A DNA stretch of 54,371 nucleotides from Clostridia bacterium. GTDB taxonomy: Bacteria; Bacillota; Clostridia; Christensenellales; Aristaeellaceae. Positions 75-54,371 of the stretch are shown here, in pieces. Below the pieces are notes generated by a model. It had not been told where the DNA came from. It searched no databases and worked only from the letters and a program-made list of their open reading frames with translations. A program made the position numbers and the translations under genes. Within the stretch, counting starts at the first letter, position 1. Each line of letters begins with the position of its first letter. The stretch covers positions 1-54,371 of the forward strand of contig JAFWQA010000034.1 in the NCBI GenBank assembly GCA_017509255.1, read 5' to 3'.

Positions 75-77
75 ATG

Positions 78-161
78 TGCGGGAAACAGGACTTGAACCT
101 GCAAGTACGTACGTACACATGAACCTGAATCATGCGCGTCTGCCAATTCCGCCATTCCCGC
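78..161 (-). tRNA. tRNA-Leu (CAG)
   Basis: An 84-nt class II tRNA with a GCGGGAA/TTCCCGC acceptor stem, a long variable arm and a TTCAGGT anticodon loop, reading CUG codons. The GGTTCAAGTCC T-arm is intact. CCA is not encoded. It is the last gene of the seven-tRNA transcript. Confidence 0.93.
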
Positions 162-166
162 ATAGA

Positions 167-251
<85 letters not shown>

Positions 252-279
252 ATATTCAGTTCCCTCTTGACCCAAAGGG

Positions 280-355
280 TGGAGCTGGCGATGGGACTCG
301 AACCCGCAACCTGCTGATTACAAATCAGCTGCTCTGCCAATTGAGCTACGCCAGC
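280..355 (-). tRNA. tRNA-Thr (TGT)
   Basis: A 76-nt tRNA with GCTGGCG/CGCCAGC acceptor and anticodon loop TTTGTAA on a GCTGA/TCAGC stem. CCA is encoded. Confidence 0.95.
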
Positions 356-397
356 ACGAAGCTCTGCTTTTTCAGTCGCGGTTCCTTTTGCAAAAGG

Positions 398-474
398 TGG
401 CGACCCGGATGGGGCTCGAACCCACGACCTCCAGCGTGACAGGCTGGCGCTCTAACCAACTGAGCTACCGGGCC
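398..474 (-). tRNA. tRNA-Asp (GTC)
   Basis: A 77-nt tRNA with GGCCCGG/CCGGGTC acceptor, discriminator G as usual for tRNA-Asp, anticodon loop CTGTCAC and encoded CCA. Confidence 0.95.
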
Positions 475-487
475 AGGAAAAAGGCTG

Positions 488-561
488 TGGGCCTTCAGGG
501 ACTTGAACCCCGGACCAACCGGTTATGAGCCGGCCGCTCTGACCAACTGAGCTAAAGGCCC
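488..561 (-). tRNA. tRNA with CAT anticodon, probably elongator Met
   Basis: A 74-nt tRNA with GGGCCTT/AAGGCCC acceptor and anticodon loop CTCATAA. The acceptor begins with a normal G-C pair, so it is not initiator fMet. Elongator Met is the likely call. A tRNA-Ile2 whose C34 is modified to lysidine shares this anticodon and is not excluded. CCA is not encoded. Confidence 0.88.
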
Positions 562-584
562 AAACCGGAAAGGAAGAAAAGGAG

Positions 585-657
585 TGACTCCGCCGGGATT
601 CGAACCCGGGTAGCCGCCGTGAAAGGGCGGTGTCTTAGGCCTCTTGACCACGGAGCC
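585..657 (-). tRNA. tRNA-Glu (TTC)
   Basis: A 73-nt tRNA with GGCTCCG/CGGAGTC acceptor (one wobble), anticodon loop CTTTCAC on a CCGCC/GGCGG stem, and a GGTTCGAATCC T-arm. CCA is not encoded. Confidence 0.94.
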
Positions 658-678
658 ACGTAACTAGGGTGGAATGAG

Positions 679-753
679 TCGGGGTGAAGGGATTCGAACC
701 CCCGGCCCCATGCTCCCAAAGCACGTGCGCTAGCCAGACTGCGCTACACCCCG
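679..753 (-). tRNA. tRNA-Pro (TGG)
   Basis: A 75-nt tRNA with CGGGGTG/CACCCCG acceptor, anticodon loop TTTGGGA and a GGTTCGAATCC T-arm. It is the first gene of the tRNA transcript. CCA is not encoded. Confidence 0.94.
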
Positions 754-43037: not shown

Positions 43038-43964
43038 TCAGGGTTCTCCGGGCAGGAGACTGGGTACGTTCATGTTTTTCGGATCGGATACGTCCAGCCC
43101 GCTGAGATAGGAGCGGCTGCCGAACACCGCGGCAAGCTGCTCCGCCTCTCCCCGGCCGATCCGCTCCCACGCTTCCGTGATCATCTTCACGGCGCTGATC
43201 CGCGCCTTTTCCCGGAGCTCCGCGAAGCTCTCGTCGGACACGGTCTCCGGATCGTACGGATTCCTCCACGTTCTCTTCTCCGTGTTGGCGGGATCCGCGT
43301 CCTTCATGTAGGATTCGGAATATACCAGCGAACGGAGCAGGTCGCTGTTTTTCTTTTTCGTCAGCCACACGAAAAAGCCCTTCGGCTTTTCCATCAGACG
43401 GTACAGGCAGCGGTACAGCGCGTAGCAGCGGTTGATGCTGCGCAGGCAGTGTTCCCAGCCGTATACCTCCCGGTAGGCGCTGTCCAGCGCTTCGCGCATC
43501 ACGGCCGGCAGCTTCATTCCCGGCAGATAGTTGTCCGTCAGCGCGTGAAGTCCGCCCCAGACGCCATCCTTTTCCATCTGCAGCACATCCAGGCTGTGCT
43601 CCAGCGCCCGGTGGGCCGCCTTCCGGCTACAGACCTCCGTAGTCTCCCAGATGATATAGGGATGCGCGGTGGAATCCAGCGCGTAATGGCAAAGGAAGCC
43701 GGCGAGGTAGGAGAACATTTCCTTCCCGCCCTTTCCGGAGCCGGCGCGCTTCGCGAGGGCTGTCAGGAAAGCGCCGGTCCTTGCGGTATGCATCCTGCGC
43801 CCGCGGCGCCAGCGCTTTTCCCCTCTGGGCCTGTACATGAACCACGGGTCCGGTCCGTACAGGGCCACGGTATAGGGTTCCCGGATCAGCTCCTTCTGTA
43901 TTTCCTGCGGCAGCGAGTCGTATACCTCCCTGCCAAACGCGTAATGTACACCCGCATCCGGCAT
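43038..43964 (-). CDS. Zinc-dependent phospholipase C-like protein
   Basis: A 308-residue protein of the zinc-dependent phospholipase C/S1-P1-like fold. Seen: PDAGVHYAFGREV start, LYGPDPWFM with a metal-binding Asp, MHTARTGAFL, and YLAGFLCHYALDSTAHPYI with the His and Asp ligands expected of the family. There is no signal peptide, so the protein is probably cytoplasmic and its real substrate is unknown. The start at 43964 follows GGAGGAAACAG; the longer opening to 44150 overlaps the upstream gene. It is 72 nt upstream of the reductase gene and 64 nt after the permease gene. Confidence 0.82.
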   Translation of the reverse strand: MPDAGVHYAFGREVYDSLPQEIQKELIREPYTVALYGPDPWFMYRPRGEKRWRRGRRMHTARTGAFLTALAKRAGSGKGGKEMFSYLAGFLCHYALDSTAHPYIIWETTEVCSRKAAHRALEHSLDVLQMEKDGVWGGLHALTDNYLPGMKLPAVMREALDSAYREVYGWEHCLRSINRCYALYRCLYRLMEKPKGFFVWLTKKKNSDLLRSLVYSESYMKDADPANTEKRTWRNPYDPETVSDESFAELREKARISAVKMITEAWERIGRGEAEQLAAVFGSRSYLSGLDVSDPKNMNVPSLLPGEP

Positions 43965-53372: not shown

Positions 53373-54121
53373 TAGCTCTGTGTGTTGATGATGAAAAGGT
53401 TCTTCTGAATACGCTGACGCGCGCGGTGGAAGCTTCTCCGGATATCACGGAAGTCGTTTCCTTCCGTCAGGAGAAGGAAGCCCTGGAGTGGGCCCAGACC
53501 AACACGCCCGATATCGCTTTCCTGGACATTGAGCTCCATCGGATGACCGGCATTGACCTGGCCGAGCAGCTTCTTGCCCTCCATCCGGATATGGGCGTTG
53601 TCTTCTGCACAGGGTACGATAACTATGCGATCGACGTCATCAACCGCCGTATACATGCTTACGGCTACCTGACCAAGCCGATCCGTCCCGACAAGGTGCA
53701 GGAGACCGTGCAGCGTTTCCTGGAAGCCCGTTCCGGGACCAAGCCGCTGATCACCGTGCGCCGCTACGGCGGCTTCGCCGTTTATGACACAAACGGCAAT
53801 CCCGTCATTTTCCAGCGCAAGCGCTCCGAGGAACTGCTGGCCCTGCTTATTCATCTGAAGGGCAAGCCCGTCCCCGTTACCACGATCTGCGATTACCTGT
53901 GGCAGGATAACACCACCATGTTCGAAAACAACCGGAACTATGTCTGGAAGCTCTTCAGCAGCCTGAAGACCACGTTGCAGGCGGTTGACGCGGTCGATGC
54001 CGTCAAGCGCAGCCCCGAAGGGCATTACGCGGATCTGTCCGTGATCCGTCTGGATGATTCCGGCTCCGATATCCTTCCCTACCTTCCGGCTTACATCTGG
54101 TCCAAACGACCGCCGGAATAA
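53369..54121 (+). CDS. Response regulator with winged-helix (SARP/Trans_reg_C-like) output domain
   Basis: A 250-residue protein. Receiver domain (1-120): acidic pair D7/D8, phospho-acceptor D53 in IAFLDIELHRMTG, switch residue in VVFCTGYDNYA, Lys in YLTKPIRP. The C-terminal domain (about 125-230) reads VRRYGGFAVYD, FQRKRSEELLALLIHLKGKPV, ICDYLWQD and NNRNYVWKLFSSLKTTL, as in the DNA-binding part of SARP/OmpR-type regulators, rather than LytTR which usually partners LytS-type kinases. Start at 53369 overlaps the kinase stop. Targets could include the divergent surface protein gene. Confidence 0.9.
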   Translation: MIALCVDDEKVLLNTLTRAVEASPDITEVVSFRQEKEALEWAQTNTPDIAFLDIELHRMTGIDLAEQLLALHPDMGVVFCTGYDNYAIDVINRRIHAYGYLTKPIRPDKVQETVQRFLEARSGTKPLITVRRYGGFAVYDTNGNPVIFQRKRSEELLALLIHLKGKPVPVTTICDYLWQDNTTMFENNRNYVWKLFSSLKTTLQAVDAVDAVKRSPEGHYADLSVIRLDDSGSDILPYLPAYIWSKRPPE

Positions 54122-54145
54122 TTGTTATTCTCCGTCTTCTCTTCG

Positions 54146-54174
54146 TTGACAAATTCCCGGTTTCCCGATATAAT
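54146..54174 (+). promoter_or_regulatory. Consensus promoter of the interrupted tRNA-Arg gene
   Basis: TTGACA, exactly 17 nt, TATAAT: a perfect sigma-A consensus promoter 27 nt before the tRNA-like sequence. Confidence 0.88.
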
Positions 54175-54201
54175 CAGCCCGTTGCCATCAAGGCAGCTCA
54201 T

Positions 54202-54240
54202 GCACCCGTAGCTCAGTAGGATAGAGCGGCCGCCTCCTAA
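54202..54240 (+). tRNA. 5' half of tRNA-Arg (CCT), interrupted after the anticodon loop
   Basis: GCACCCG acceptor strand, TA, a normal D-arm (GCTC...GAGC), the 5' anticodon stem GCCGC and loop CTCCTAA with anticodon CCT (54236-54238) match tRNA-Arg(CCT). After 54240 the sequence no longer gives the 3' anticodon stem (expected GCGG-like, found GAAG), and neither a TTC-type T-arm nor CGGGTGC is found in the remaining 130 nt. The gene is either split by an intron or insert whose end lies beyond the window, or broken. Confidence 0.72.
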
Positions 54241-54371
54241 GAAGTAGGCCGACTACCGTCTTTCCGGAAACTGAAAACGGGAACAGCGTTCGGAAGTGAC
54301 CCGGTTTCCCAGTTGCTCCGACGCCCTTACCAAGCAAGGTCGAAATCAGCATGTGGGAAAATGTCCTACCG
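54241..54371 (+). other. Structured sequence interrupting tRNA-Arg, runs off the window
   Basis: No open reading frame of note. Stems seen: GCCTCCT (54232-54238) with AGTAGGC (54243-54249), six of seven pairs and a 4-nt loop; GTAG/CTAC (54244-54256); GCG-T-TCGGA (54286-54294) with TCCGACGC (54317-54324). The end, GTCGAAATCAGC then GTGGGAAAA and TCCTAC (54340-54369), is loosely like the P3-P4 region of group I introns. This would be the intron's first half; the catalytic core cannot be checked here. Confidence 0.4.

What the first reader, a model, noticed from the sequence alone, without database searches (positions are those of the whole stretch)
54146..54371. tRNA-Arg(CCT) split after its anticodon loop by structured non-coding sequence
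A perfect consensus promoter drives a clean 5' tRNA half ending at the anticodon loop. The next 130 nt contain no tRNA 3' half but do contain several stems. The last six exon bases plus the anticodon U can pair with AGTAGGC just inside the insert, as the P1 helix of a group I intron would do, although the splice-site U would face A rather than the usual G. Group I introns in tRNA-Arg(CCU) are known from Agrobacterium (established knowledge); one in a Clostridia genome would be notable. The alternative is an integrated element using the tRNA as its attachment site without restoring it.
Basis: partly seen in the sequence, partly recalled or inferred. Interest (0 to 1): 0.75.

Follow-up and report, generated by a model that had tools for sequence, protein, structure and literature searches.

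The report
Mobile elements carrying a replacement tRNA
The cut-off tRNA gene at the end of this contig is most likely the left junction of an integrated mobile element that breaks tRNA-Arg(CCT) in its anticodon loop; in relatives such elements bring a complete spare copy of the tRNA just inside the junction, and that copy can be hit again by the next element.

Summary
The window ends inside a split tRNA-Arg(CCT): perfect promoter, 5' half, anticodon loop CTCCTAA (54234-54240), then 131 bases of foreign DNA to the contig end. Rfam finds no group I core in window or genome. The same 131 bases occur letter for letter in another genome behind a different tRNA-Arg(CCT), and there lead within 0.3 kb to a complete tRNA-Arg(CCT). 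A truncated scan gave 119 such stretches, in Clostridia by their titles; 74 of 117 parsed junctions are followed directly by an intact tRNA-Arg(CCT). In four genomes with both ends on one contig the missing 3' half lies 12-50 kb away and pairs fully with the outermost 5' half; in two others it does not. A tyrosine integrase lies within 1 kb of a junction in 12 of 17 genomes that have it. Attachment sites share CTCCTAA, usually plus one G. So ICE/IME-type elements integrate at the anticodon loop, rebuild neither half, and carry a whole spare tRNA, which is a new target; hence stacked arrays. This works like 'tRNA-dependent lysogeny' of actinophages, here in conjugative elements. For the window itself the spare tRNA, right end and integrase lie beyond the contig or are unidentified.

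The parts
54146..54174 (+). Host promoter of the disrupted tRNA-Arg(CCT): TTGACA 54146-54151, 17-nt spacer, TATAAT 54169-54174
   Evidence: (12 of 12 consensus positions)
54202..54233 (+). 5' half of the native tRNA-Arg(CCT), acceptor GCACCCG through anticodon stem GCCGC (left half of attB)
   Evidence: similar halves found in relatives
54234..54240 (+). CTCCTAA, the 7-nt anticodon loop; shared by left and right junctions, inferred strand-exchange (overlap) region
   Evidence: the next base is G in 111, T in 5, A in 1 of 117 left junctions, so the shared stretch is 7 bp strictly and 8 bp in most types
54241..54371 (+). Start of the element's P' arm (A-type), cut by the contig end
   Evidence: 131 of 131 identical to L167, 97% to G021, 76-95% to further relatives; not a significant RNA fold

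Best explanation
The feature is attL of an integrated mobile element. A tyrosine integrase exchanges strands within the 7-bp anticodon loop CTCCTAA of tRNA-Arg(CCT). attP carries neither tRNA half, so the host gene is cut in two: promoter and 5' half stay at the left end, the 3' half ends up at the far right end. tRNA-Arg(CCT) function is kept by a complete spare tRNA-Arg(CCT) lying between the crossover and the element's genes. In the A-type, to which the window belongs, I see no promoter of the spare's own, so it would be transcribed from the captured host promoter through the P' arm and cut out by normal tRNA processing; the commonest 84-bp type has its own promoter. Because the spare contains the same anticodon loop it is a fresh attB, and later elements insert into it, giving arrays of 5' halves. 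Shown in relatives: junction anatomy, P' plus spare tRNA recurring as one unit in different hosts and loci, outer halves that match, a linked integrase in other Clostridia. Inferred: the recombination chemistry, expression, and that the window's own element follows this plan beyond the contig end.
For: Same insert, other host: L167 has the 131 nt unchanged after a different 5' half, with no upstream similarity except tRNA, then an intact tRNA-Arg(CCT), a NADAR gene, SpaA pilin and a DUF3801 gene. Units move: in the 84-bp cluster (n=12) spare tRNAs are identical (median 1.00), outer 5' halves are of 11 kinds, upstream 150 bp 0.59 identical (0.57 against shuffled sequence); the A cluster (n=12) has 7 outer kinds. 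Right ends: at 9 of 22 sites in 41 genomes of the genus the 3' half is preceded by non-tRNA DNA. Matching: of 13 genomes with a left array and an orphan right end in hand, outermost 5' half and right 3' half pair fully (7/7, 5/5) in 7, 7/7 and 4/5 in the own genome, less in 5; 0 of 100000 random re-pairings score as high. Host flanks joined in a script are called tRNA-Arg(CCT) by ARAGORN in 3 of 3 genomes. Integrase: 17 of 23 genomes reached through junction loci have a homologue at E<=1e-15, in 12 within 1 kb of a junction; R, K, H, R, H, Y invariant in the three aligned (catalytic roles recalled). P-arm|CTCCTAA|P' junctions without tRNA halves are seen at L061 and L205.
Against: In the window's genus only 2 of 25 genomes have a hit to this integrase, at 26-28% identity and not at a junction, and PF00589 hits in 19 genomes (own and 18 congeners) were not near arrays, though contig ends limit this; the A-type integrase is unidentified. 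The own right end was not closed: C29 carries another P-arm type than G012's A-type element and an imperfect 3' half, and C1 holds a second, degenerate candidate. Outer halves do not match fully in G006, G011, G019, G087 and G088; in G087 and G088 both ends are on one contig. In G012 apparent housekeeping genes (named by recall) lie between the ends. Arm-site repeats: two elements reach counts that 14 of 200 and 6 of 200 shuffles reach, a third shows none (196 of 200). No excised circle: four viral-contig scans gave 0. No empty site for the window's locus: 1 of 45 genomes, its own, has the upstream flank. In G018 and G019 the following tRNA is deleted.
Confidence: 0.87

Rival explanations
1. 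A group I intron interrupts tRNA-Arg(CCT) at the anticodon and is spliced out.
For: Position fits known tRNA introns (recalled); a 6-of-7 P1-like pairing exists.
Against: No Intron_gpI match in window or genome; relatives carry a spare whole tRNA or another 5' half, not a 3' exon, behind the insert; P1-like pairing in 19 of 117 junctions, 8% in shuffles; 0 of 53 pairs covary in 10 inserts; fold z -0.91.
Confidence: 0.01
2. Ordinary tRNA island: attP carries a tRNA half and the gene is rebuilt at one junction.
For: A tyrosine integrase, tRNA target and far-away 3' fragment are the usual signature (Islander, PMC4383910, passages seen).
Against: Left junctions have a 5' half plus non-tRNA DNA; right junctions a 3' half plus non-tRNA DNA; the shared stretch is CTCCTAA, usually plus G. 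The intact tRNA is a separate whole copy.
Confidence: 0.03
3. A dying tRNA gene or a chimaeric assembly end with no mobile element behind it.
For: The contig ends here, and several relatives' contigs also end at these arrays; G018 and G019 have lost the tRNA.
Against: 131 of 131 identity with another assembly at another locus, and 76-97% in further ones, is not expected of independent chimaeras.
Confidence: 0.05
4. The insert is a conserved structured RNA made from tRNA-derived tandem units.
For: P' arms are conserved (A cluster median 0.87) and would be transcribed if the host promoter reads through.
Against: No covariation, ordinary folding energy, many unrelated P' types in the same place (61 clusters from 117 junctions), integrase linkage.
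Confidence: 0.04

Closest known systems
tRNA-dependent lysogeny of actinobacteriophages (Guerrero-Bustamante and Hatfull 2024, PMC10865867; abstract, discussion section and passages read)
   Same: Tyrosine integrase; [quoted passage not shown] host tRNA not rebuilt; [quoted passage not shown]
   Different: Here conjugative or mobilizable elements of Clostridia rather than phages; one target, tRNA-Arg(CCT); spare tRNA lies 41-277 nt from the crossover and, in the A-type, seems to depend on the captured host promoter (a fragment upstream of Fionnbharth's tRNA is a strong promoter); the spare is re-used as target and arrays build up. Need of the spare for survival was tested there, not here.
tRNA-integrated genomic islands (Islander, PMC4383910; passages read)
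   Same: Tyrosine integrase, tRNA target; an anticodon-centred crossover class is described.
   Different: Those restore the gene from a fragment in attP; here a whole second gene is brought and both native halves are lost.
Clostridial ICEs with CD1110/CD1115-family transfer genes (annotation of NZ_OY725736.1; likeness to Tn1549 is recalled)
   Same: Relaxase, MobC, VirD4-like CD1115 and VirB4-like CD1110 proteins, class B sortase, SpaA.
   Different: The integration site and spare tRNA are not part of that family's usual description as I recall it.

Membership tests
Group I intron | Catalytic core matching the covariance model | tested here: not met
   No RF00028 match in window, permissive scan of 54000-54371 or own genome (control rang in 4 of 14 genomes); the insert is cut at 131 nt, but the full A-type region in L022 and L024 also gave no match
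Group I intron | 3' exon directly behind the insert | tested here: not met
   Relatives have a whole spare tRNA or another split half next
tRNA-dependent integration (type: tRNA-dependent lysogeny) | Short common core that does not rebuild the host tRNA | tested here: met
   CTCCTAA, usually plus G
tRNA-dependent integration (type: tRNA-dependent lysogeny) | Element-encoded tRNA of the same isotype | tested here: met
   Met in relatives: 74 of 117 junctions directly followed by intact tRNA-Arg(CCT); the window itself is cut before it
tRNA-dependent integration (type: tRNA-dependent lysogeny) | Element-encoded tyrosine integrase | tested here: inconclusive
   Within 1 kb of a junction in 12 genomes of other Clostridia; not found for the A-type in the window's genus
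tRNA-dependent integration (type: tRNA-dependent lysogeny) | Spare tRNA needed for survival of integrants | not testable with these tools
   -
tRNA-dependent integration (type: tRNA-dependent lysogeny) | The element is a temperate phage | tested here: not met
   Conjugation genes in the Monoglobus element; relaxase, ParB and CD1107-like domains in G065 and pilin, sortase, Toprim in P7; four viral-contig scans 0. Against: a few unverified 'Bacteriophage sp.' records carry the integrase with a right end
Classical tRNA island | attP fragment restores the gene | tested here: not met
   The junctions read carry no restoring fragment
ICE | Relaxase plus coupling protein and T4SS ATPase between the junctions | tested here: inconclusive
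   Met for the Monoglobus element; the A-type element in L167 shows SpaA and DUF3801 before the contig ends; window not testable

The most novel reading that the evidence does not exclude
tRNA-Arg(CCT) is a general, self-renewing docking site of Clostridia: several unrelated attP types, borne by conjugative and mobilizable elements, have arrived at the same bargain of breaking the gene and paying with a whole spare copy placed beside attP's core, so that each arrival rebuilds the site for the next, and some types live off the promoter of the gene they broke. Chains of dead 5' halves then record successive integrations.
Probability: 0.6. Interest if true: 0.7.

Novelty: new variant of a known kind. 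Interest (0 to 1): 0.6.

Why it matters
It extends tRNA-dependent integration, which the paper I read describes for phages, to conjugative elements and to a large range of Clostridia. It makes the evolutionary question raised in PMC10865867 (how spare-tRNA integration relates to half-gene restoration) testable, because many attP types with one target can be compared. It also explains a class of annotation oddities: orphan tRNA halves, contigs that break at tRNA-Arg(CCT), and defence genes (BREX, Qat, restriction) sitting behind this tRNA.

Tried and rejected
Group I intron. Tiny cassettes of about 250-295 bp as complete mobile units (my first reading of the arrays): dropped when the far 3' halves were found. 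PF00589 near arrays in 19 genomes (own and 18 congeners): none adjacent. Viral origin: 0 hits in four scans; a few 'Bacteriophage sp.' records carry the integrase with a right end, but are titled unverified clones from faecal samples. An extrachromosomal attP in the Subdoligranulum 'plasmid' record: it shows a left junction with a 5' half instead. An automated search for P-arm|core|P' junctions returned 0, apparently because its filter excluded them; the two junctions were read by eye and confirmed by exact search; the one at L061 keeps only about 35 bp of recognisable P arm. Empty site for the window: none. A first matching test used seven genomes; on recheck I added the six left out (G006, G008, G011, G019, G077, G087), of which two match fully and four do not.

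Papers: no search of the nine made listed a paper that by title or abstract start treats tRNA-Arg(CCT) elements of Clostridia carrying a spare tRNA; the library holds open-licence papers only, so this is not proof of absence. PMC10865867 was read in abstract, discussion and passages; PMC4383910 in passages; all others only as search listings.

Full report
1. What is in the window. The last 226 bases hold a 12-of-12 promoter, the 5' half of tRNA-Arg(CCT) and 131 bases that are not tRNA; the contig (G000:C23) ends there. At gathering scores Rfam has no family for the insert, group I introns included; the permissive scan gave one weak unrelated hit; there is no group I match in the own genome.

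2. Relatives. A DNA search of 61 genomes found the tRNA half plus insert in congeners, at 78-98% identity over nearly the whole query in the best seven, and showed repeated 5' halves at single loci. In the window's genus 18 genomes have at least one split 5' half (23 loci of 21 genomes given, out of 37 same-genus genomes; G001, G002, G023 and G036 show one intact tRNA and no array in the stretch opened). Arrays read: promoter, 5' half, P' arm, 5' half, P' arm..., complete tRNA-Arg(CCT), terminator-like hairpin, then genes.

3. The other half. A pattern search for CTCCTAA plus 3' half in 41 genomes of the genus gave 22 sites; 9 lack a 5' half and are preceded by other DNA, in several cases with TTAGAA-like repeats. 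In G012 such an orphan lies 24.6 kb from the array and pairs fully with its outermost 5' half. I read these as right junctions. The own genome has two candidates: C29:98870 and C1:384-678, whose 3' half is degenerate and is followed by a large serine recombinase gene.

4. Breadth. In these loci plus the window, 117 left junctions with a following half within 400 nt were parsed: 87 first in their array, 74 directly followed by an intact tRNA-Arg(CCT), P' length 41-277, median 84.

5. Whole elements. Ruminococcaceae bacterium P7: outer left junction at C34:55228, right at 43475, 11.75 kb, with integrase, pilin, sortase and Toprim proteins. P. phocaeensis An858: C5:16713 to 52024, 35 kb, with relaxase, ParB/CD1107-like protein and the integrase beside the right end. 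Monoglobus record: left junction near 418.7 kb, right near 468.9 kb, with MobC, relaxase, VirD4- and VirB4-like proteins between. Its native halves are unlike the spare tRNA and pair 7/7 and 5/5 with each other, while the spare's 5' half pairs 5/7 and 3/5 with the right end.

6. Do the halves match? In 13 genomes I had both a left array and an orphan right end. Full match (7/7 acceptor, 5/5 anticodon): G008, G012, G065, G067, G077, G081, Monoglobus. Own genome (C29 candidate): 7/7 and 4/5. Less: G006 3/7, 5/5; G011 5/7, 4/5; G019 5/7, 5/5; G087 5/7, 5/5; G088 4/7, 2/5. No one of 100000 random re-pairings scores as high as the observed pairing. Both ends lie on one contig in G012, G065, G081, G087 (contig lengths agree), G088 and Monoglobus: four of these six match. 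Mismatches may be nested elements or decay of dead halves; I did not resolve them.

7. Integrase. The P7 protein has PF00589, SAM-like domains and a sub-threshold arm-binding match. Of 48 genomes searched, 19 have a homologue at E<=1e-15: 17 of 23 reached through junction loci and 2 of 25 of the window's genus. Within 1 kb of a junction: G065, G066, G067, G069, G077, G079, G080, G081, G087, G088, G090, G091.

8. Same unit, different hosts. Searches show that P' plus spare tRNA is conserved while the native half and flank are not; the window's 131 nt are identical in L167. This is the direct evidence that the insert is mobile, and L167 is the best guess at what follows the contig end: A-type P' arm, tRNA-Arg(CCT), NADAR, SpaA pilin, DUF3801.

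9. Expression. Native leaders reach 10 of 12 promoter positions in 45 of 86 cases (2 of 86 shuffled); P' arms in 21 of 112 (1 of 112 shuffled). The A-type P' of L122 has none (best 7 of 12), the 84-bp type of L137 has TTGACA-17-TAAAAT. So dependence on the captured promoter is likely for the window's type and not for all.

10. Cargo. Behind left junctions of A-type elements: NADAR (G012; L167), Vsr, PLD and DUF6998 (G012), QatA-D, BrxL, PglZ and PglX (G083); in other arrays PglZ and HNH (G021) and a Mrr-type nuclease (G029).

11. Limits. The window's own element is not closed; its integrase is unknown; five of 13 outer pairs do not match; arm repeats are supported in part; the named-genome scan was truncated, so frequencies are lower bounds. 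Conservation of the unit could partly reflect shared ancestry of related MAGs, but 11 kinds of outer half among 12 loci speak against that.

12. Verdict. An ordinary-looking half gene is one end of a widespread integration strategy. It works like tRNA-dependent lysogeny but in conjugative elements and with the spare tRNA beside the attachment core; hence new variant of a known kind.

Noticed in passing
L028 (G024:C10) and L036 (G008:C20), native 5' half: Roughly 140-200 nt of another repeat sits in the D-loop of the native 5' half; by eye a related repeat lies with tRNA 3'-end pieces downstream of tRNA-Arg(CCT) in L030, L031, L033 and behind right ends L080, L083.
   Followed up: no
G000:C1:384-678 and L114 757-2457: Right-end-like P arm, CTCCTAA and a degenerate 3' half followed directly by a large serine recombinase gene in the window's own genome.
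   Followed up: partly
L023 (G018:C2) and L039 (G019:C15): The following tRNA is deleted, in both cases from just after the CTCAG of the D-arm; transposase-like genes (by eye) follow in L039.
   Followed up: no
L058/L088 (G026:C9), L060/L089 (G010:C39): Intact tRNA-Arg(CCT) without upstream P' but with sequence downstream that resembles the own C29 P arm (83-84% over 70 bp), as if recombination between 5' halves had removed the P' arm.
   Followed up: no
G000:C27:272658-285107: A tRNA and a 23-bp copy of its T-arm region 12.4 kb apart, a possible island at a tRNA 3' end.
   Followed up: no
window 77-753: Cluster of seven tRNA genes on the minus strand at the other contig end.
   Followed up: no
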